A DNA stretch of 64,000 nt. Source: Thermoleophilum album (GTDB lineage Bacteria > Actinomycetota > Thermoleophilia > Solirubrobacterales > Thermoleophilaceae). A model generated the notes under the pieces. The model worked only from the letters and a program-made list of their open reading frames with translations. It did no database searches and was not told the origin of the DNA. Each line of letters starts with the position of its first letter. Positions within the stretch are counted from its first letter, which is position 1. This document shows, piece by piece, positions 53,804-64,000 of the stretch. The stretch covers positions 62,001 through 126,000 of the forward strand of contig NZ_FNWJ01000001.1 of NCBI RefSeq assembly GCF_900108055.1. The letters run 5' to 3'. The position numbers were made by a program, and so were the translations under genes.

Positions 53804-54570
53804 TCACCAAGGAACGTCCAATCATCACGGGCGAGCGCGCTGTCACAGCCGAGGGAGGTTTCAACCCCTCTTGGCAGCGCCACAACGTGGAGTACAAACT
53901 CGCTGCCCGCTTCTTGCCCGACGGCGAGATCGTCGACATCGGTTGCGGGGTCGGTCACGGCTGCGAGCACCTGGCCCCCCGGCCATCGGTGGGTGTCGAC
54001 ATCGTCCCAGACGTGCTCGCAGGGCAGCCACGTCCGACCGTGGTCGCAGACATGCGTGCCCTACCGTTCCCATCCGGGCGCTTCGCGGGCGCGATTTCGG
54101 TGCACGCGATCGAACACGTCCCCGACCCGGAGCGCGCGGCAGCCGAGATGCACCGAGTGCTCGCGCCCGGCGGCGTCGCTGCGGTTTGGACGCCGAACCG
54201 ATTGACGTTCGGGATCCCTGACGAGATCATCGATCCCTATCACTACGTCGAGTTCGCACCCGACGAGCTGCAGCAACTCCTGGCCGAAATCTTCGATCGG
54301 GTCGAGCTCTATGGGCTATTCGCGTCGGAGCGGTACATGCGGATACACATCCGCGAAAGGAGGCGGTTGCGGCGTCTGCTGGCACTCGATCCGTTGGCAC
54401 TGCGCCGGGCGATACCTCGTACCCTGCGCCAGCGTCTCTACGACTGGCAGCTCAGCCGCGCGCGGGCTCAGCCCGATCCAGACGCCGCCGCAATCCGCGA
54501 GCACGATTTCTTCCTAGCCTCAGAGCGACTTCACGAGTGTCTCGACGTGCTTGCGGTCTGTCACAAATGA
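53800..54570 (+). CDS. SAM-dependent methyltransferase (type 11-like)
   Basis: About 256 residues. Motif I is VDIGCGVGHGCEHLAP, followed by VGVDIVPDVL, DMRALPFPSGRFAGAISVHAIEHVPDP and MHRVLAPGGVAAVWTPNR. The GTG at 53800 overlaps the stop of the preceding glycosyltransferase by 4 bases, so the pair is translationally coupled. Probable role: methylation of a sugar or lipid-linked intermediate. The substrate is unknown. Spacing to the next methyltransferase gene is 34 bases. Confidence 0.83.
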   Translation: MITKERPIITGERAVTAEGGFNPSWQRHNVEYKLAARFLPDGEIVDIGCGVGHGCEHLAPRPSVGVDIVPDVLAGQPRPTVVADMRALPFPSGRFAGAISVHAIEHVPDPERAAAEMHRVLAPGGVAAVWTPNRLTFGIPDEIIDPYHYVEFAPDELQQLLAEIFDRVELYGLFASERYMRIHIRERRRLRRLLALDPLALRRAIPRTLRQRLYDWQLSRARAQPDPDAAAIREHDFFLASERLHECLDVLAVCHK

Positions 54571-54604
54571 CCGACCTCACGCAAGAGAGGAGCCTGAGCG
54601 ACCA

Positions 54605-55657
54605 GTGACGAGCCCCGGCGAAACAGCCACGCGACCAGCAACCGACATCACGCTCTACGACCTCGACCCGTACGCGCACGACCCGACGCGGTGGGCCACT
54701 TCGATGGCTCATCACGCGGAGCTTTTGATTCCCTGCCTCGAGCTCGTCAGGCCGACTCGTATCGCTGAGATTGGTGCCTTTGCTGGTGACTTGACACGGC
54801 TCTTGATCCGCTGGGCGGAGGAAGCCGGCGCGAAGGTGGAAGCGATCGACCCAGCACCACAGCCGTCGCTGGTCGAGCTCGCGGACTCGAGCGAGCGGTT
54901 GGAACTCGTCAGGAAGACCAGTCTCGAAGCGCTCCGTGAGCGTGAGCTGGCCGACGCAATCGTGATCGACGGCGACCACAACTACTACACGGTCTCGCGC
55001 GAGCTGGCGCTGATCGCCGAGCGCGGCGGGCAGAGTGCGCTGCCGCTACTTTTCTTTCACGACCTCTGCTGGCCGCACGGACGCCGGGACGACTACTTTG
55101 ACCCAGAGTCGATACCGCCGGAGTATCGCCATCCCTTGGTCGGTGAAGGTCGCGGGATCTTTCCGGGCGATCCAGCCACTCGGATCAACGGCCTGCCCTA
55201 CCCCAAGTCAGCGGCCCACGAGGGCGGTGAACGCAATGGGGTGCTTACCGCGGTCGAAGACTTCGCGGCTGCACAGTCGCACGTGCGGCTCGCCGTGGTG
55301 CCGATCTTCTTTGGCTTCGGCGTTATGTGGGACGTGCGGCAGCCATGGGCTGAGGAGCTTGAGCGGCTGCTCGCGCCGTTCGACCGCAACGCCATGCTCG
55401 CACGTCTCGAACGGAACCGCGTGTTGCAGCTCGCCCGGCAGCACGCCTACCAGGTCGAAATCTGGCGGCTGACCGAGCTCCTGCAGCGGCGGGAACGAGT
55501 GCTCAGACGTCTTCTGGAATCGCGTGCCTTCGCAGTCGCGGAGAAACTCTCCCGCCTGCGCGCCCGGCTGGGAATCTCGCGGGAAGTATCCGTCGTCTCA
55601 CGCGAGGAGGTGCGCCACGCGCTGGCGGGCGAACCACGCCCCACTCCCGAGCGATGA
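54605..55657 (+). CDS. Class I methyltransferase with helical C-terminal tail
   Basis: About 350 residues. The N-terminal ~240 form a methyltransferase-type domain: RIAEIGAFAGDLTRLLIRW (motif I), VEAIDPAPQPSL and DAIVIDGDHNYYTVSRELALIAERGG, a pattern of the Methyltransf_24 / sugar O-methyltransferase type. The last ~75 residues are strongly helical and basic (RLTELLQRRERVLRRLLESR and beyond), a tail also seen on other enzymes of this locus. The GTG at 54605 has GAGAGGAG ~15 bases upstream; an in-frame ATG at 54551 would overlap the previous gene. Convergent with the next gene. Confidence 0.78.
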   Translation: MTSPGETATRPATDITLYDLDPYAHDPTRWATSMAHHAELLIPCLELVRPTRIAEIGAFAGDLTRLLIRWAEEAGAKVEAIDPAPQPSLVELADSSERLELVRKTSLEALRERELADAIVIDGDHNYYTVSRELALIAERGGQSALPLLFFHDLCWPHGRRDDYFDPESIPPEYRHPLVGEGRGIFPGDPATRINGLPYPKSAAHEGGERNGVLTAVEDFAAAQSHVRLAVVPIFFGFGVMWDVRQPWAEELERLLAPFDRNAMLARLERNRVLQLARQHAYQVEIWRLTELLQRRERVLRRLLESRAFAVAEKLSRLRARLGISREVSVVSREEVRHALAGEPRPTPER

Positions 55658-55684
55658 CGCTTTGGTGCACCCGCGGAACGACTT

Positions 55685-56635
55685 CTAGCCGGCCTTCCCG
55701 CGTGACGCGCCGCGGAGAGGCGGGCGCCGCTTGGCCTGGCGCTCGCGCCGTTGTCGGCGGCGTGTGTTGAGGCGGCGCAGCGGCTCGGTGAGCCGCCAGG
55801 AAAGACTTCCGTAGATTCGGTCGCGCTCCTGCTCGAGCGGTCTAGCGGCCGCGTTGACGTGCAGCAGTCGGGTGTGAGCGGCGGACCGCGCTGCCTCCCG
55901 CTCGGCCTCCGCAAGCCAGGCACGCTCGCGCCAGTCGGCCGGCTCCGTGCGACCGAAGCCAAGCTGACCCTCCCATTTCTCGGCCAGTTGGATGTGGGCC
56001 CTGATCCAAGCTGGGTCGCCCTCCTCCACAAATTTGAGACCGCCGTAGAAAGCGACGGAGGTCTTCACGACCACCACCCGTTTGCCCTGGGCTCGTGCCT
56101 GCAGGCAGAGATCGAGTTCGCAGCCAACGCTGTTCTCCAAGCCCTCGTCGAAGCGCAGGTTGTTCACCGCCCAAGGCGAAAGGAACACCGCGCAAGGGTC
56201 GATGGCCTCGACCTCCGCGGGAGCCGAACGCGGGTTGAAGACCTCCCACCGCTGCACCTCGCCGCCCCCGTGCTCCTGGTAGCGCAGGCGCACGTCGGCG
56301 CTCACGACGGCGCCGTCCCACCAGGCCAGGCTACGGACCCCGCAAGCTCCGGCACAGCCCGCAATCGCTATGGAACCGTCGGCGAAGGCCTCACGCAGCT
56401 TCGCGAGGAGTCCCTCGTCGAGCAGCTCGCAGTGCGGGTGCACGAGGACTAGGCCTTCCAGTTGATCGCCGGCCCGCGCGGCAAGGTCGAGGAGAAGGTT
56501 CCAACTGCGGGCGCGGTTGCGCATTGCTCCGACTAGGTGGAGCTCTGAATCGGGCTCGCGGGCGCGTTCGATGCCGTTCGCCGCGTACCGCTCGAAAGCC
56601 TCGACGTCCTCAATCGCGCAGCCGAATGCGATCAC
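55685..56635 (-). CDS. Glycosyltransferase-like protein, paralogue A (altered HQD motif)
   Basis: 316 residues. Begins MIAFGCAIEDVEAFERYAANGIER and shares its whole plan with the next gene: LEGLVLVHPHCELLDEGLL, GCAGACGVRSLAWWDGAVVSADVR, VEAIDPCAVFLSPWAVNNLRFDEGLENSVGCELDLCLQARAQGKRV, a GT-A-like fold. At the expected metal-site motif (HQDTE in paralogue B) this copy has HPHCE, losing the aspartate. The C-terminus carries SLSWRLTEPLRRL and a strongly basic tail. ATG 56635 lies ~20 bases after the stop of paralogue B, so the two are a tandem pair. It may be a non-catalytic partner. Confidence 0.78.
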   Translation of the reverse strand: MIAFGCAIEDVEAFERYAANGIERAREPDSELHLVGAMRNRARSWNLLLDLAARAGDQLEGLVLVHPHCELLDEGLLAKLREAFADGSIAIAGCAGACGVRSLAWWDGAVVSADVRLRYQEHGGGEVQRWEVFNPRSAPAEVEAIDPCAVFLSPWAVNNLRFDEGLENSVGCELDLCLQARAQGKRVVVVKTSVAFYGGLKFVEEGDPAWIRAHIQLAEKWEGQLGFGRTEPADWRERAWLAEAEREAARSAAHTRLLHVNAAARPLEQERDRIYGSLSWRLTEPLRRLNTRRRQRRERQAKRRPPLRGASRGKAG

Positions 56636-56657
56636 CGGGACACCTTGTAATCCTCGT

Positions 56658-57767
56658 TCAAAACCGCCCAGCCCATTCGCTCATCGAAGTTTTGTCGCGG
56701 TCCGCACGCGCCCCCGCCCAGCCGTTTTCGGCAAACCCCTCGGCACCCGCGGCGAGGTCACCCCTCGCGACCCCTGAGCTGGCAGTCTGTTCAGTCGCCG
56801 ACGAGGGGGCTACAGAGTGCTCGCGGATACCGGACGTGCCTCGGTGAACGGTACGTCTCCATGCGCGCGAAAGCCGCCGCAGGAGGAAGCGGGGTAACCG
56901 CAACGGTGCAGTCAGCCGCCAGCCAATGCTCTCACGCGCGCTTTTGATCGCCCGCTCCAGGTCGTGAAGCATCGCTCGACCTTCCAGGACGTTCGCGTAC
57001 CCGACCGCCCGCGCTAGGTCACGCTCAGCCTCGGCGCGGCGCGCGCGTTCCTTCCAGGTACCGGGCCCCGTCCCGACACGTGGCATCCGGCCGTACCACT
57101 TGCGAACGACCTTGACGTTGGCCTCGATCCATCCCTCGAGGTCACTGACGAGGTCGAGCGAATGGTGGTGGATCGCCCGGAACCCCACGGCCAAGACCTT
57201 CTTTCCGGAGGCGCGAACCTGTAGACAGAAATCGAAGTCGTATCCGTGAAAGCTGCCGAGCGAAGGGTCGAAGCGAATGTTGCGCACGACCCACGGCGAC
57301 AGGCAAAGCAGAAAGCCGTCGACGCTCTCGACTTCCCCGTCACACGAATACGGAGACTCATCGCCGCGTTCCCAGGAAAAGCCCGCAACCGTGCCCCCGC
57401 CGTACTCCGGGTATTGGTGCAGGAAAGCCGCGAGACGGACCGACCCCTCCCACCACGCGATGGTGCGCACGTCAAGCGCCCCCACACAGCCCACTACACC
57501 GACCGCCGGATCGGCCTCGAGCACCCGGCGCAGTCGCTGGCAGAAGTCGGCGTCGACGATCTCCGTGTCTTGGTGCAGCAGGACCAGCGCTTCGAGCCCT
57601 TCAAGAGCAGCAGCCTCGTCGAGCAGCGCGTTGTAGCTCTCGAAGATCGTGCCCGCACTCGGTCGCGCGAGGACCACCGAGTCTTTTTCGGCCGCGCGCT
57701 GGATCCCGGGCAGCGCGCAACGCTCGTAGACCTCTCGGTCGGTAATCGATACTCCAAAGGCGATCAT
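56658..57767 (-). CDS. Glycosyltransferase-like protein, paralogue B
   Basis: About 369 residues starting MIAFGVSITDREVYERCALPG. GT-A-like motifs are LVLLHQDTEIVDADFCQRLRRVL, GCVGALDVRTIAWWEGSVR, VESVDGFLLCLSPWVVRNIRFDPSLGSFHGYDFDFCLQVRASGKKV and the HHHSLD stretch, consistent with the family 2 branch that uses a HQD motif. The C-terminus has SIGWRLTAPLRLPRFLLRRL and a basic, Ser/Ala-rich tail. ATG 57767 is preferred; the frame continues to 57917 without conserved sequence. Upstream of paralogue A in the same operon. Confidence 0.82.
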   Translation of the reverse strand: MIAFGVSITDREVYERCALPGIQRAAEKDSVVLARPSAGTIFESYNALLDEAAALEGLEALVLLHQDTEIVDADFCQRLRRVLEADPAVGVVGCVGALDVRTIAWWEGSVRLAAFLHQYPEYGGGTVAGFSWERGDESPYSCDGEVESVDGFLLCLSPWVVRNIRFDPSLGSFHGYDFDFCLQVRASGKKVLAVGFRAIHHHSLDLVSDLEGWIEANVKVVRKWYGRMPRVGTGPGTWKERARRAEAERDLARAVGYANVLEGRAMLHDLERAIKSARESIGWRLTAPLRLPRFLLRRLSRAWRRTVHRGTSGIREHSVAPSSATEQTASSGVARGDLAAGAEGFAENGWAGARADRDKTSMSEWAGRF

Positions 57768-57988
57768 CGGGAAGGCTCGCGGCCACCCCCGTCGACGGGA
57801 CAGAGGGGCGGGGTGAATCGATAGGGGCAGAGCGACGATAGACGGTGCCAGCGCTCGCGCGCAAGCCAGCGGCGCGCTAGGCTCGAGGCCCGTTGCGCGA
57901 AGCGGCCCTCGGGCCATAAGCTTTCGCGCAGAGAAAACCGCTTCGTCACGCGCCGACTTTCTTTCCTAGCCCCCTCGAGGCGCACCTC

Positions 57989-58798
57989 ATGTGGAACGGT
58001 CAAACAGTCTCGGTGGTTTTGCCCACCTACGCCGAGCGCCTTTCGATTCGGAGGGTCATCGAAGCCTTCTTCGAGACCGGCGTGGTCGATGAAGTCGTCG
58101 TAATCGACAACAACGCGGAGCCGGGCACTCGGGAGGAGGTAGCGGCGACGCGGGCACGGCTGGTCGTCGAACCGCGGCAAGGCTACGGGCACGCGATCCG
58201 GCGCGGGTTGCTCGAGGCAGACGGCGAGCTGGTCGTCGTGACCGAGCCCGACGGCACCTTCCTGCCGCAGGACATATCCAAGCTCCTGGTCTACAGCGAC
58301 GAGTGCGATGCGGTGTTCGGCACGCGCACGACGCGCAACTTCATCTGGCGAGGTGCGAACATGCCGCCGCTTCTGCGCTGGGGAAACTGGGGCGTGGCGA
58401 AGCTCGTTGAGGCCCTTTTCAACACCAACCACCTGAGTGACGTCGGCTGCACGTACAAGCTCTTCCACCGGGACCTTGCACGCCACATAGCGCAGCATAT
58501 GGCGATTGGCGCGAACCACGCCGCGATCGAGATCATGCTGATCACGATCACGAGCAGAGCGTCGTTCATCGAGCTGCCGGTGAACTATCTGCCGCGAGTA
58601 GGTCGCTCGTCAGTCACCGGGAATCACCTGGTAGCAATCGGTCTCGGCCTACGGATGGTTCGTGAGGTCCTGCGGTACCGCCTCAGGGGAGGCGCACCCC
58701 CGTATCGTTCGGAACGACGACCGCCGCTAGCCCCCTTGGTGGAGCTGCCGCGCGCGAGCGAGACTCACAAGCGCGCGGTTGAGCAGACAACCAACTAA
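57989..58798 (+). CDS. Family 2 glycosyltransferase (polyprenyl-phosphate sugar transferase-like)
   Basis: 269 residues: VSVVLPTYAERLSIRRVIEAFFE, VVVIDNNAEPGTREEV, VVEPRQGYGHAIRRGL, the VVTEPDGTFLP acidic motif and FGTRTTRNFIWRGANMPPLLRWGNWGVAKLVEALF, then LSDVGCTYKLFHRDL as in DPM1-type enzymes. No membrane helices. ATG 57989. The C-terminus is Pro/Arg-rich. Transcribed alone between two minus-strand blocks; it could charge the lipid carrier used by the GT39-type protein at 58.9-60.7 kb. Confidence 0.87.
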   Translation: MWNGQTVSVVLPTYAERLSIRRVIEAFFETGVVDEVVVIDNNAEPGTREEVAATRARLVVEPRQGYGHAIRRGLLEADGELVVVTEPDGTFLPQDISKLLVYSDECDAVFGTRTTRNFIWRGANMPPLLRWGNWGVAKLVEALFNTNHLSDVGCTYKLFHRDLARHIAQHMAIGANHAAIEIMLITITSRASFIELPVNYLPRVGRSSVTGNHLVAIGLGLRMVREVLRYRLRGGAPPYRSERRPPLAPLVELPRASETHKRAVEQTTN

Positions 58799-58858
58799 GC
58801 CGCTAACGGGCGACTGCCCGCGCGCTGCGCTGTCGCTCTCGCACAACGGCGCGACCTT

Positions 58859-60694
58859 CTAGCTCCCGGCCTTTCGCCCACCAGCCAGCGTATGCCCTGC
58901 TTTGGCATTCGTTCTGCGCAGTACTACGAGCACCGGTCGCGCAAATCCACGCTCGGCGCGATCGACGAAGACCGCGCGCAGGCCCAGTGAACGCCATTGG
59001 CGAGAGGGATCAGCAACCCTGCGCACGCGCGCCCTAAAGGGCCCTGATGCGCTCTTCGGAAGCGACTGCATAAAGAGGAACACGCGCCCCCGTCGCGATG
59101 TATGGATGAGCGCTCGCGCCAACGCATCCCGCAAGCTGGGGCGGTGATCGAACAACCCGAAGGGGCGGTCGCGGACCTCCGGAGCGCCAGCGCGGAAGGT
59201 CGGCAGCGACGGGTGCGGCAGGGTATCGAGAACACTCGGCGGCCCCGGGCTCAGGATGGCCGTGCCATCGACGATGGCATCGCCGACGCGCGCTTCCCTC
59301 CTCAGATGTTCTGCGAGCGGGCGCACCTCCGGCCTACCCTGCTCCCCGAGCGCAGTCAGCGCGCCGCTAAGCACGAAACACCCGCAGATACCCGCTGCCC
59401 CGATCGCGCGGGTGAACCCGCGCAGCAGAAACGGGACCGAACCGAGCAGCACAACGAGCGCGGGATAGGACGCTGCCAGGTTGCGAGGTCCGTACACGTG
59501 TGTACCGACAAGGGATACCGCGAGCGCGAGGACCGGGTTGGCGAGCGCGAGCATCACCGTCAGCGCCACCAGACGCTGTCGCTCCCTGCTTAGGGAAAGC
59601 AGGTGCCGCCGGACTACGAGACCGAAGAGGGCGACCGCAACACCCACCACGAGCAACGCGACCCCCACCGCCCCGGGTATCGCGGATACCGGCACGACCG
59701 CGTAGGGATAAGCGAACGACCAGTGCAGCCAATAACGGGTCAGGTTCTCCAGATCGAGCGGTGTGAGGGCGTTGAGCAGCGGTGTAGTCCACGAGTTTTG
59801 ATCGGCGATCACCCCCGGTATCCAGGGCGCAAACAGCACTGCCGCCCCGAAATTCGCGATCAGGGCAGTCCGCAACTGCGACCGTTGGAAGGCAGCCAGC
59901 CAAACTAACTGCGCGAAGAGGGCAAAGGCGGCCGTGTAGTGGCTGTACATGGCGGCGGCCGACGCCAATGCGTACCCGGCCCAGTAGACGCGCCGCCGCC
60001 GGCGGACCGCCTGAACTAGGCAGACCGTGCTAGCGGTCACGCACAGCATCATTAGGGCATAGGCGCGCGCCTCCGCCGAGTAGTAGATGAGGAAGGGACT
60101 TGCAGCCGCAAGCACGCCCGTGGCGAAAGCGGCACCCCTTCCGGCTAGAAGACGCGCCCACCAAACGACGAGCGGCAACAGCAGCATTCCCGCGACAAGC
60201 GACGGCAAGCGGAAGAAGAGCGGCTCCTTGCCAAGCCAAGTCGACACACGCGCGAGAACGAAGAACAGAGGGGGCGTGATCTCCGCGTCCGTCTTGACGA
60301 GGCGGACGACGTCGAGCACCGACGAAGGGGTCGTGACGTCCCAGTACGTCGCGAGTTCGTCGCCGAAGAGATCGTCGCCGGCGACCCTCAATCGCCACCA
60401 GCCAGCGACGACGAAAACAAGCCCGATCGCACCCCAAAAGAGGACCGGGCGCGCTTGCCGCAAGCTGGTGCCAATGCCCGTGGTTGGTGAGCCGTCGCGT
60501 ACCGCGCTCGGCCTGTCTGGGGCGACCTCGGCTAGCTGGCCGTGTAACTCCACCGACGCGATGCTAAAGGCGCTCGGTGGCCGAGGGAAGGCTGTTTGGC
60601 AAGCCCCCCGGACGGCGGGCCGGCCGCTGGCGGGCAGAGCGGTGCGTTGCGAGCAGCACCGCGGCCCTCTAGGTTCATCGGCGAGCATGCCCAC
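58859..60694 (-). CDS. GT39/PMT-2 type membrane glycosyltransferase
   Basis: 611 residues with ~10-12 helices. After a soluble N-terminal region (~1-80) and first helix (VLFWGAIGLVFVVAGWWRL) comes the acidic loop DDLFGDELATYWDV, typical of the catalytic aspartate site in ArnT/PMT-like enzymes, then TPPLFFVLARVSTWLGKEPLFFRLPSLVAGMLLL. It would transfer a sugar from a lipid phosphate donor to an extracytoplasmic acceptor. GTG 60694 and ATG 60688 are both possible starts. The C-terminal ~130 residues form a soluble domain. Confidence 0.83.
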   Translation of the reverse strand: MGMLADEPRGPRCCSQRTALPASGRPAVRGACQTAFPRPPSAFSIASVELHGQLAEVAPDRPSAVRDGSPTTGIGTSLRQARPVLFWGAIGLVFVVAGWWRLRVAGDDLFGDELATYWDVTTPSSVLDVVRLVKTDAEITPPLFFVLARVSTWLGKEPLFFRLPSLVAGMLLLPLVVWWARLLAGRGAAFATGVLAAASPFLIYYSAEARAYALMMLCVTASTVCLVQAVRRRRRVYWAGYALASAAAMYSHYTAAFALFAQLVWLAAFQRSQLRTALIANFGAAVLFAPWIPGVIADQNSWTTPLLNALTPLDLENLTRYWLHWSFAYPYAVVPVSAIPGAVGVALLVVGVAVALFGLVVRRHLLSLSRERQRLVALTVMLALANPVLALAVSLVGTHVYGPRNLAASYPALVVLLGSVPFLLRGFTRAIGAAGICGCFVLSGALTALGEQGRPEVRPLAEHLRREARVGDAIVDGTAILSPGPPSVLDTLPHPSLPTFRAGAPEVRDRPFGLFDHRPSLRDALARALIHTSRRGRVFLFMQSLPKSASGPFRARVRRVADPSRQWRSLGLRAVFVDRAERGFARPVLVVLRRTNAKAGHTLAGGRKAGS

Positions 60695-60724
60695 TAGCCC
60701 CCGCTGTCGACTTCAGCTGCCGCG

Positions 60725-62068
60725 ATGAACACGCCCGTCGTGATCGAGGTTCGCGACGTCGCGAAGACGTTCTTGGTCCCGGAGCACCGCGTGGACACTC
60801 TGAAGGAGCGCGTAGTGCGCCCCTTCCGCCGCATCTCATACCGGCGATTCGAGGCGCTTAAGGGCGTCTCGTTCGACGTTTACGACGGTGAGTTCTTCGG
60901 GATCGTGGGGCAGAACGGCTCGGGCAAAAGCACGCTCCTAAAAATCCTCGCCAACATCTACAAGGCCGACCGCGGTCGTGTGCGCGTAGCCGGCCGGGTG
61001 GCACCCTTCATTGAGCTCGGCGTGGGCTTCAACCCCGAGTTCACGGCAAGCGAGAACATCGAAATCAACGGCGTCTTGATGGGGCTCACCCGTCGCGAGG
61101 CGCGACGGCGCGCGGATCGCATCCTGGACTTCGCAGAGCTCCAGGAGTTCCGCGAACTCAAGCTCAAGAACTACTCGTCCGGGATGATGGTGCGCCTCGC
61201 CTTCTCGATCATGGTCGAGGCGGACGCCGACATCATGCTGATCGACGAGGTGCTGGCGGTCGGCGACGCTGGTTTCGCGCAGAAGTGCATGGACGTTTTC
61301 CGCGCTCGCAAGCGCGCGGGCAAGACGATCGTGCTGGTGACGCACGACATGGCGACCGTCCAGTCGATGTGCGATCGCGCGCTGCTGATCGACGTCGGCG
61401 AGGTCCGCTACGTGGGCGATCCGGAGGAAGCCGCTCGTCGTTACCTACGTATCAACTTTCAGCGCGGGAGCAATCGCAGCGCAGCGGGCGAACCGAGCGA
61501 CCCAGCCACCGGCGGGGAGCGCATGCGGGTGGCGGTCCCCCAAACCAACGTCCGTCTCGCGTCGGCACGCCTGCTCGTCAACGGCGAAGAAGCGCGAAAC
61601 GTCGAGGAAGGCGCGAGCTTTCTGATCGACGCACGCCTGCGCGCTGAACGGGAGCTGAAGGACCCGTTGTTCGGGCTCCAGGTCTTCAACGACGAAGGGA
61701 TCTTGATCGCCCGACCACCGCGCTGGAGGCTGCCGGAGCAGCAACGAGCGAGGAAAATTGCAGTCGACGAAGAGCTAGCCGTGCAGATCGAACTCGAGAA
61801 CCCGTTCGTCCCTGGCCGCTACTCCGTCGATCTGTGGGTCGCAGAGGAGCGCGGTCGCGACGAGATCGCCGTGCAGCCGCTGCGCCTGATCTCGTTCGTC
61901 GTTTACGGCACCGGTGAGCGCGAGGGAATCGTGCGTCTGCGCAGCCGTTGCTCGACCGAGTTGGGGCAACCGCCGACCGGATCGCACGAGATCGGGCCGA
62001 CCATGACATCGGCTTCGCCTGCCATGCCCACCGCCTCGCCGACGGACGTCGAAGACGGGGTGCTATGA
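60725..62068 (+). CDS. wzt: Polysaccharide ABC transporter ATP-binding protein (Wzt-like) with C-terminal domain
   Basis: 447 residues. ABC domain (~1-240) with Walker A GQNGSGKST, the FIELGVGFNPEFTASENIEINGVLMGL region typical of the O-antigen/teichoic-acid subfamily, signature YSSGMMVRLAFS, Walker B IMLIDEVLAVGD and the switch in VTHDMATVQ. The C-terminal ~130 residues (about 275-400) form a beta-rich module like the Wzt domain that recognises the end of the exported glycan. ATG 60725. The stop overlaps the permease start (ATGA). Confidence 0.92.
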   Translation: MNTPVVIEVRDVAKTFLVPEHRVDTLKERVVRPFRRISYRRFEALKGVSFDVYDGEFFGIVGQNGSGKSTLLKILANIYKADRGRVRVAGRVAPFIELGVGFNPEFTASENIEINGVLMGLTRREARRRADRILDFAELQEFRELKLKNYSSGMMVRLAFSIMVEADADIMLIDEVLAVGDAGFAQKCMDVFRARKRAGKTIVLVTHDMATVQSMCDRALLIDVGEVRYVGDPEEAARRYLRINFQRGSNRSAAGEPSDPATGGERMRVAVPQTNVRLASARLLVNGEEARNVEEGASFLIDARLRAERELKDPLFGLQVFNDEGILIARPPRWRLPEQQRARKIAVDEELAVQIELENPFVPGRYSVDLWVAEERGRDEIAVQPLRLISFVVYGTGEREGIVRLRSRCSTELGQPPTGSHEIGPTMTSASPAMPTASPTDVEDGVL

Positions 62069-63006
62069 GCGAACTCAGCGACACACCCTTGACGGAGACA
62101 AAGGAAGCGGTAGTCCGCACCGACTGCTCGCAAAACGGCGAGCGCAGTGCTCGCGATGGCCACGCAGCGCGTCCTCCACTAGCACTGCGTGACGTCAACG
62201 GCCCCTCAGCACTGAGCGGCGGCTGGCGTCGTGCTCTTCAGCTTCTGTGGTTGCTGTCGGTGCACGACTTCAAGAAGGCCTACTTCGGCACGGTTCTCGG
62301 CTACGTCTGGTCGGTGATGCGGCCGCTGCTTCTCTTCTCCGTTCTGGTGGCCGTCTTCACGCAGGTGTTCAGGGCCGGTTCGGGCGTTCCCCACTATCCG
62401 GTGATCCTGCTCCTGAACATCGTGTTGTTCACGTTCTTCTCGGAGGCCACGACCGCGGCCGTCGGCTCGATCGTCGCTCAGGAGTCTGTCGTTCGGAAAA
62501 CTGAGTTTCCGCGTGCGGTGATCCCGATCGCCGTGGTCCTGACGAGCCTTTTCAACCTCGGTCTGAACCTCATCGTGGTGTTCATCTTCATGCTCGCCTG
62601 GGGACTCGAACCGCGCCTCCAGTGGCTCGGCCTGATCCCGATCGTGATCGCCCTGTTCTGGCTTACCGCGGCGGTGGCGATGATCCTCGCCTCGCTCTAC
62701 CCGCGCTTCCGCGATACGGCGATCATCTGGTCGGTGCTGAGCACCGTGCTTTTCTACGGCAGCCCGGTCCTGTATCCGGCCGAGATCGTGCCCAGGCCAC
62801 TATCGCACTTCGTTCAGGCGAACCCGTTCGCGCCCTTGCTCGAGTACGCGCGCGTGTGGCTGATCGACCCCAGCGCACCGACCCCGCCCGAACTGGCCGG
62901 CGGCACCGCCTGGCTCGTAATCCCGTTCGCCTGTTTCCTGGGCATCGGGGCACTCGCGATCTGGATCATGAACCGCGAAGCGCCCCGAATCGCCGAGCGC
63001 CTCTAG
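62065..63006 (+). CDS. wzm: Polysaccharide ABC transporter permease (Wzm-like)
   Basis: 313 residues. A ~60-residue soluble N-terminus is followed by six helices: LLWLLSVHDFKKAYFGTVLGYVWSVMRPLLLFSVLVAVF, NIVLFTFFSEATTAAVGSIVAQESVVRKTEFPRAVIPIAVVL, and FYGSPVLYPAEIVP near the last helices, the hallmark ABC2-type polysaccharide permease pattern. ATG 62065 overlaps wzt by 4 bases. With wzt it exports a finished polysaccharide chain, so the locus has both a Wzx and a Wzm/Wzt route. Confidence 0.92.
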   Translation: MSELSDTPLTETKEAVVRTDCSQNGERSARDGHAARPPLALRDVNGPSALSGGWRRALQLLWLLSVHDFKKAYFGTVLGYVWSVMRPLLLFSVLVAVFTQVFRAGSGVPHYPVILLLNIVLFTFFSEATTAAVGSIVAQESVVRKTEFPRAVIPIAVVLTSLFNLGLNLIVVFIFMLAWGLEPRLQWLGLIPIVIALFWLTAAVAMILASLYPRFRDTAIIWSVLSTVLFYGSPVLYPAEIVPRPLSHFVQANPFAPLLEYARVWLIDPSAPTPPELAGGTAWLVIPFACFLGIGALAIWIMNREAPRIAERL

Positions 63007-63034
63007 AGGCTGCGTCGGCACGCAACACTGGAGC

Positions 63035-64000
63035 TCAACGTACGTGTCGGAGCACCAGACTCGCGGCCCGGCGCAGCCGCCGGGTGATTCTCCGGCCCAG
63101 CGCGCCTTCGTATTTCTGGCAACGCTGCTCGAGCTCGCCCAGCCGCTCGCGCAGACCAGTCAACTCAGCGTTCAGGGCGTGAGTTCGCTCGCGCATCCCC
63201 GCGAGCTCGGCCTGCGCACTCTCGAGACTCAAGGTCAGCTCCGCTTCACGCGCCGTCGGTATCCGCGGGGTGGGGGCCAGCTCGAGGCCGTAGCGTGGGT
63301 TCACCACGCCCTGGAGCTCACCGAGCTGCTCCACCGCGTCCTCGAGAGGCAGGTCCGGCGGGCGCACCGGCTCCCGCCCGGGGCCGCTCCCTTTGCGCCA
63401 ACGAACGCAAGTCCAGTCGACCCACTCGATGCGATCCTCGATCCCCCGCGCGGCTCGGAACTCCTCGACCGCGGCGCGGCACTCCTCGACCCAGCCGTAG
63501 TCGTCGATGATCACGAAGCCTCCCTCCACCAAGTCGTCGTAGAGGGCTTCTAGTCCCGTGCGCGTCGCCGTGTAAGTGTCACCGTCGAGGCGTATAAGCG
63601 CCCAGCGGCGCGAGCCCTTTAGCCGCGGAAGTGTCTCTTCGAAGAAACCCTCGATGAACTCGAAGCCTTCCGTGTAGCCGAAGCGAGCGAAGTTCTCGCG
63701 CACTTCCGCTGCGGAGACCGCGAGGTATTCGATCTCGCGGAGCATTCCTTCGAGCCCAGCGCTGCGACCAGCGGATGGTTCGCCCTTATCCCGCCTGAAC
63801 CCCTTGAACGAATCGGCGACCACGACCACTCGATCACCCTCGATGCCATGGGCAGCAAGCGCCGCACGCATGAACAACGCCGCACCGCCTCGCCACACCC
63901 CGGCTTCGATGAGATCTCCGGGCACTCGTTCATTCGCGATCGTCTCGATGCACCGGTCGAGATCGTCGAGACGCATCAGCCCTCCCATCGAGATCCCGTT
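63035..64000 (-). CDS. TylF/MycF-type sugar O-methyltransferase, 5' end beyond window
   Basis: The frame stays open to the right edge; the last codons seen (NGISMGGLMRLDDLDRCIE) match the internal TMIG-LRLDNL part of TylF-family proteins, so the real start is outside and ATG 63988 is probably not it. The domain has VPGDLIEAGVWRGGAALFMRAAL (motif I), VVVADSFKGF, and the metal-ligand region LIRLDGDTYTATRTGLEALYDDLVEGGFVIIDDYGW. TylF-like enzymes O-methylate sugars with Mg2+. The last ~100 residues form a coiled, basic tail ending RITRRLRRAASLVLRHVR. Convergent with wzm. Confidence 0.85.
   Translation of the reverse strand, partial: NGISMGGLMRLDDLDRCIETIANERVPGDLIEAGVWRGGAALFMRAALAAHGIEGDRVVVVADSFKGFRRDKGEPSAGRSAGLEGMLREIEYLAVSAAEVRENFARFGYTEGFEFIEGFFEETLPRLKGSRRWALIRLDGDTYTATRTGLEALYDDLVEGGFVIIDDYGWVEECRAAVEEFRAARGIEDRIEWVDWTCVRWRKGSGPGREPVRPPDLPLEDAVEQLGELQGVVNPRYGLELAPTPRIPTAREAELTLSLESAQAELAGMRERTHALNAELTGLRERLGELEQRCQKYEGALGRRITRRLRRAASLVLRHVR

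What the first reader, a model, noticed from the sequence alone, without database searches (positions are those of the whole stretch)
54605..64000. Shared helical/basic C-terminal tails on unrelated enzymes of the polysaccharide locus
Both tandem glycosyltransferases end with a WRLT-x-PLR motif followed by basic residues (SLSWRLTEPLRRL, SIGWRLTAPLRLP). Two methyltransferases (54.6 kb and the TylF-like protein at 63 kb) end with helical, Arg-rich stretches of similar length after their catalytic domains. A common tail on different fold types suggests a docking or membrane-targeting module that gathers the modifying enzymes into one complex. Similar tails occur in some O-antigen enzymes from my memory, with no established role.
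Basis: inference. Interest (0 to 1): 0.65.

Follow-up and report, generated by a model that had tools for sequence, protein, structure and literature searches.

The report
WbdD-type membrane foot on sugar-polymer enzymes
Two sugar-transferring enzymes and one methyl-transferring enzyme in this cell-surface polymer locus end in the same short tail (a coiled coil, a conserved elbow and a positively charged helix), a portable piece with no entry in the family libraries that also sits where the E. coli enzyme WbdD meets the membrane, so it probably holds unrelated enzymes at the membrane where the polymer is built.

Summary
Both tandem glycosyltransferases end in coiled coil + S-x-[SG]-W-R-L-T-x-P-L-R + basic helix (profile scores 46 and 40 bits; best of about 2000 shuffles 12). 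The TylF-like methyltransferase carries a worn copy: its sister-species ortholog reads SLSWRLTRPLR. The 54.6-kb methyltransferase does not: its tail is conserved but found only in its own family, with weak resemblance. The module is widespread and has no Pfam or NCBIfam model: glycosyltransferases, several methyltransferase families, and apparently a sulfotransferase and an ATP-grasp protein, in many bacterial phyla. In the window's order (Solirubrobacterales, inferred) 96 carriers lie in 58 of 121 genomes; 17 of 24 multi-carrier genomes have two within 40 kb (1.4 expected). E. coli WbdD (O8: SRSWRITQPLR; O9: SRSWRMTKGYR at residue 592) has the motif at the boundary between its coiled coil and the C-terminal domain reported to bind membrane and polymerase. 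Best explanation: a WbdD-type membrane foot holding cytoplasmic polysaccharide enzymes at the membrane; one multi-enzyme complex remains unproven.

The parts
56898..56930 (-). Elbow motif SIGWRLTAPLR of GT 56658-57917 (Glyco_tranf_2_5 family)
56931..57020 (-). Predicted helical/coiled-coil stretch before the motif in the same GT (approximate)
   Evidence: heptad-like hydrophobic spacing in the aligned carriers; sequence
56841..56897 (-). Basic amphipathic helix after the motif (LPRFLLRRLSRAWRRTVHR); D factor 2.90 for PLRLPRFLLRRLSRAWRR
55775..55807 (-). Elbow motif SLSWRLTEPLR of GT 55685-56635 (paralog with degenerate catalytic motifs)
55688..55774 (-). Highly basic C-terminus after the motif (RLNTRRRQRRERQAKRR...), net +10 in 18 residues, little amphipathicity
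55808..55870 (-). Short predicted helix/coil before the motif in GT 55685-56635 (approximate)
   Evidence: sequence
63071..63103 (-). Worn copy of the motif (ALGRRITRRLR) at the end of the TylF-like methyltransferase; the gene continues beyond the window end
63104..63256 (-). Predicted coiled coil before the worn motif in the TylF-like methyltransferase (approximate)
   Evidence: sequence
55475..55576 (+). Family-specific conserved tail (SRAFAVAEKLSRLRARLG) of the Methyltransf_24 protein 54551-55657; not shown to be the same module

Best explanation
The WRLT tail is a portable membrane foot of the kind found in E. coli WbdD. An upstream coiled coil lets the enzyme self-associate and may set a distance. 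S-x-S-W-R-[LIV]-T-x-P-L-R is the elbow where the coil ends and a new helix begins. The basic amphipathic helix after it lies on the anionic inner face of the membrane. It keeps otherwise cytoplasmic glycosyltransferases and methyltransferases next to the lipid-linked growing polysaccharide and its Wzm/Wzt exporter (gene 60725-62068 encodes a Wzt with a Wzt_C domain). Shown here: the shared sequence module, its family spread, its clustering, its charge and amphipathicity, and its position in WbdD. Inferred: membrane binding, oligomerisation and the elbow geometry in the window proteins.
For: 71 of 80 independent pattern hits are in frame in carrier-like proteins, with hydrophobics at -20, -17, -13, -10, -6 and -3 before the motif and a basic amphipathic stretch after it: mean D 1.78, 83% above 1.34, muH 1.5 SD above shuffles, against 17.5% above 1.34 for 320 background C-termini of the same loci. 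Carriers include GT2, GT4, Methyltransf_24, Methyltransf_11/25, PIG-L, WbsX, TylF and FkbM domains. In-order carriers cluster: 17 of 24 genomes against 1.4 expected. W and R are invariant and T and P nearly so in GT homologs otherwise variable there. WbdD of an O8 and an O9 locus has the motif at the end of its coil; papers place membrane and WbdA association in the region beyond that coil (PMC11231755; PMC5082667; PMC3482155; PMC6286764).
Against: WbdD has about 117 residues from the motif to its end, while the first GT has 40 and the TylF-like protein 22, so the recruitment part may be missing. The stretch after the motif in GT 55685-56635 is very basic but its best window is not amphipathic (muH 0.06). 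A lipid-binding helix alone would not need so exact a motif. Some GT homologs in the order lack the motif. In 8 carriers the motif is near the N-terminus and in 20 internal, so it is not always a terminal foot.
Confidence: 0.6

Rival explanations
1. The motif is a specific protein-docking tag: the enzymes of a locus, or mixed coiled coils, recognise each other or a shared hub through it, forming one complex.
For: Exact conservation of S-x-S-W-R-x-T-x-P across phyla and folds; several carriers per locus; four of five tandem GT paralogs that have lost the catalytic-looking H-x-D and H-H-H residues still keep the tail; WbdD's C-terminal region recruits WbdA (PMC3482155).
Against: The window genome has only two full carriers, both from one GT family; no common partner is apparent across such diverse loci; a charged amphipathic helix fits lipid binding as well; the O8 and O9 WbdA proteins show no such tail.
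Confidence: 0.2
2. The elbow directly binds the phosphate region of the polyprenyl carrier, or lipid head groups, presenting the lipid-linked substrate to the enzyme.
For: Trp and Arg at conserved spacing; the carriers are mostly enzymes expected to act on lipid-linked glycans; inference only.
Against: Not tested; also found on a protein without an evident lipid-linked substrate (ATP-grasp L053).
Confidence: 0.1
3. The tail is only a coiled-coil oligomerisation and folding element, with the basic end a by-product.
For: Heptad pattern before the motif; part of the WbdD coil is reported to matter for trimerisation and kinase function (PMC3482155, PMC11231755).
Against: The most conserved residues lie after the coil, and the basic helix far exceeds background C-termini.
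Confidence: 0.08
4. Composition or chance: GC-rich, Arg-rich C-termini that look alike.
For: May apply to the 54.6-kb methyltransferase.
Against: GT tails exceed every shuffle by about 30 bits; strict DNA pattern 39 matches against 5 in the reversed control over 396 genomes.
Confidence: 0.02

Closest known systems
E. coli WbdD (O9/O9a and O8 chain-terminating enzyme), coil-to-C-terminal-domain junction
   Same: Catalytic domain, then coiled coil, then SRSWRMTKGYR (residue 592, O9) or SRSWRITQPLR (residue 308, O8), then basic helices; encoded beside wzm/wzt
   Different: WbdD has about 117 residues from the motif to its end and, in O9a, a coil of about 200 angstrom; the window GTs have short coils, and are transferases rather than known terminators
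Basic amphipathic membrane-association helices of GT-B glycosyltransferases (e.g. PimA, LpxB; PMC6286764)
   Same: Basic amphipathic surface used for membrane association
   Different: Those are built into the catalytic fold; this is a separable tail with its own motif on several folds
Pfam Glyco_tranf_2_5 (PF13712) and TylF (PF05711)
   Same: Catalytic domains of the carriers in the window
   Different: Neither model covers the tail; TylF homologs outside the genus lack the motif

Membership tests
SxSWRxTxPLR tail module (GT 55685-56635 and GT 56658-57917) | Motif S-x-S-W-R-[LIV]-T-x-P-L-R or close variant | tested here: met
   (the second GT has G for the second S)
SxSWRxTxPLR tail module (GT 55685-56635 and GT 56658-57917) | Coil-like heptad hydrophobics before and basic stretch after the motif | tested here: met
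   alignments; amphipathicity itself is lacking in the best window of GT 55685-56635
SxSWRxTxPLR tail module (TylF-like methyltransferase) | Motif, by homology | tested here: met
   worn copy; ortholog L151 intact
SxSWRxTxPLR tail module (Methyltransf_24 protein, 54.6 kb) | Motif or significant profile similarity | tested here: inconclusive
   marginal scores, tail confined to its own family; not filed as a member
WbdD-type chain terminator | Motif at the coil end next to basic helices | tested here: met
WbdD-type chain terminator | Extended C-terminal region after the motif (about 117 residues from the motif on) with polymerase recruitment | tested here: not met
   shorter in the window: 40 residues in the first GT, about 90 in the second (not basic-helical throughout), 22 in the TylF-like protein; recruitment itself not testable
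WbdD-type chain terminator | Adds a terminal residue that ends the chain | not testable with these tools
   The Wzt_C domain suggests recognition of a modified chain end; the TylF-like methyltransferase is a candidate by inference

The most novel reading that the evidence does not exclude
S-x-S-W-R-x-T-x-P-L-R is a general, portable assembly tag by which bacteria gather unrelated polysaccharide enzymes, including catalytically dead glycosyltransferase paralogs kept as scaffolds, into mixed coiled-coil complexes standing on the membrane, with WbdD as the one studied example.
Probability: 0.25. Interest if true: 0.8.

Novelty: new variant of a known kind. Interest (0 to 1): 0.55.

Why it matters
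How cytoplasmic polysaccharide enzymes are held at the membrane is mostly unknown outside a few O-antigen systems. A short module with no Pfam or NCBIfam entry, shared by many such enzymes and by WbdD, gives one small, testable peptide and links a well-studied E. coli protein to a large set of uncharacterised loci, including in an order not expected to make LPS.

Tried and rejected
Loose pattern WRxTxPxR over the phylum was too noisy to use. A first own-genome pattern was mis-spaced and void. No solved structure carries the module: only chance-level matches. Literal motif strings are in no relevant paper of the held library; three key WbdD papers tried by DOI are not held. The idea that the 54.6-kb methyltransferase tail is a diverged copy was tested three ways and left unproven; Methyltransf_24 proteins elsewhere do carry the module but are too distant to count as orthologs, and the match of their WRLT to the WRLT at 55463 in that alignment is chance.

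Full report
Observation. Two adjacent Glyco_tranf_2_5 glycosyltransferases on the minus strand (55685-56635 and 56658-57917, the first below Pfam's cut-off) carry SLSWRLTEPLRRL and SIGWRLTAPLRLP near their C-termini. An exact WRxTxPxR DNA pattern occurs only at these two places in the 2.2-Mb genome, with none in the reversed control. Profile A3, which includes these tails, finds only the same two convincingly. The independent 71-tail profile ranks them first and second in the window at E 6.5e-11 and 1.8e-4. Shuffles never approach their scores.

Is it a module? I judged 71 to be in-frame carriers and set 9 aside as chance or too short. They come from records labelled Proteobacteria, Actinomycetota, Clostridia/Bacilli, Bacteroidota, Chloroflexota, Acidobacteria and Patescibacteria, among others. 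Before the motif, hydrophobic residues recur at -20, -17, -13, -10, -6 and -3. After it the sequence is basic and amphipathic: mean D 1.78 against 0.56 for 320 other C-termini of the same loci. The hydrophobicity scale and D formula were written from memory. The motif lies within 60 residues of the C-terminus in 40 carriers, near the N-terminus in 8 and internal in 20; 3 run off the stored DNA. The fixed motif columns are fixed by the search pattern; the flanks are not.

Which proteins? Domains among 70 of the matched proteins include GT2, GT4, Methyltransf_24, Methyltransf_11, PIG-L, WbsX, TylF and FkbM. Of 20 C-terminal carriers examined one by one, 8 are methyltransferases, 7 glycosyltransferases or glycosyltransferase-like, 1 matches a sulfotransferase below cut-off, 1 is an ATP-grasp protein and 3 match nothing. 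No Pfam or NCBIfam model covers the tail and no solved structure matches above chance.

In the window's order, profile A3 finds 96 carriers in 58 of 121 genomes. Of the 24 genomes with at least two, 17 have a pair within 40 kb, against 1.4 expected for random placement. Of 33 carriers examined there, 17 are Glyco_tranf_2_5 and at least 7 carry methyltransferase domains. Two carriers in these genomes share their tails with records titled Solirubrobacteraceae (L092 and L070; L227 and L230), so the order is probably Solirubrobacterales; this is an inference. A stricter DNA pattern over 396 phylum genomes gives 39 matches against 5 in the reversed control, though several of those 39 outside the order look like chance on inspection.

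The methyltransferases. The TylF-like protein (63035-63988, running off the window; full ORF L150) ends KYEGALGRRITRRLRRAASLV. Its 59%-identical ortholog in the same genus has SYENSLSWRLTRPLRKAASIV, so the window copy is a worn version. More distant TylF homologs lack it, as expected if the tail was gained or is easily lost. The 54.6-kb Methyltransf_24 protein has a different conserved tail, S-x-A-F-x-x-A-E-x-L-S. Profile comparison puts the two tails in register, but with only marginal support, and a search of 121 genomes with its own profile finds that family alone. One GT homolog (L239/L281) reads SKAWRLANRYRAVRDRL, a possible intermediate. I leave this tail outside the module. The gene itself is a conserved partner: in 20 of 23 genomes its tail lies within about 1 kb of a WRLT tail, on the opposite strand in most listed cases.

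Link to WbdD. In E. coli IAI1 (O8 locus) the methyltransferase beside wzt contains LHNSRSWRITQPLRWLSLQRQLLRQ, scoring 33 bits; no other protein tested in the locus has it. In an O9-family locus the 708-residue WbdD has KIHRSRSWRMTKGYRYLGLQIHLLRQ with the motif starting at residue 592, 21 bits against a shuffle maximum of 6.6. [quoted passage not shown] PMC5082667; PMC3482155). The motif therefore falls at the junction between coil and that region. The studied O9a protein is 708 residues (PMC3482155); I identified the sequence here by length and gene context.

Mechanism. Most likely the tail is a foot: coil, elbow, basic helix on the membrane. T-x-P is a common start of a helix (general knowledge), which fits an elbow. 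Shown: sequence, spread, clustering, charge. Inferred: membrane binding, oligomerisation, geometry. The window feet are shorter than WbdD's, so polymerase recruitment should not be assumed.

A further hint of a structural role: in five genomes the second GT of the tandem has lost the H-[QE]-D motif (HPHC, HPHA, NEYT or EDHT instead) and part or all of the H-H-H motif, yet four of the five keep the tail. That these residues are catalytic is from general knowledge of GT-A enzymes, not tested.

Limits. Key papers on WbdD's C-terminal region are not in the library, so an earlier description of the motif cannot be excluded. The chance expectation for clustering ignores contig breaks and shared ancestry of tandem GTs, so part of the clustering reflects gene duplication.

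Noticed in passing
55685-56635 (-): The second GT of the tandem lacks the H-[QE]-D and H-H-H residues of its paralog, and counterparts in four other genomes are degenerate at the same places; probably a pseudo-glycosyltransferase.
   Followed up: partly
60725-63006 (+): ABC exporter genes: Wzt with a Wzt_C domain, followed by a Wzm-like permease ORF. This suggests a terminally modified polysaccharide, with the neighbouring TylF-like methyltransferase as a candidate chain terminator.
   Followed up: no
54551-57917: Methyltransf_24 gene convergent with the tail-bearing GTs is a conserved cassette: in 20 of 23 genomes of the order with that methyltransferase tail, a WRLT tail lies within about 1 kb.
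   Followed up: yes
L053:1835-3181 and L062:6801-8000: The module also occurs on a YheC/D-like ATP-grasp protein and on a protein weakly matching sulfotransferases.
   Followed up: no
63988-64000: The TylF-like gene is cut by the window end; its full ORF continues upstream (L150).
   Followed up: yes
about 55463 (+): A third WRLT, inside the helical region of the Methyltransf_24 protein, is not conserved in orthologs and looks like chance.
   Followed up: yes
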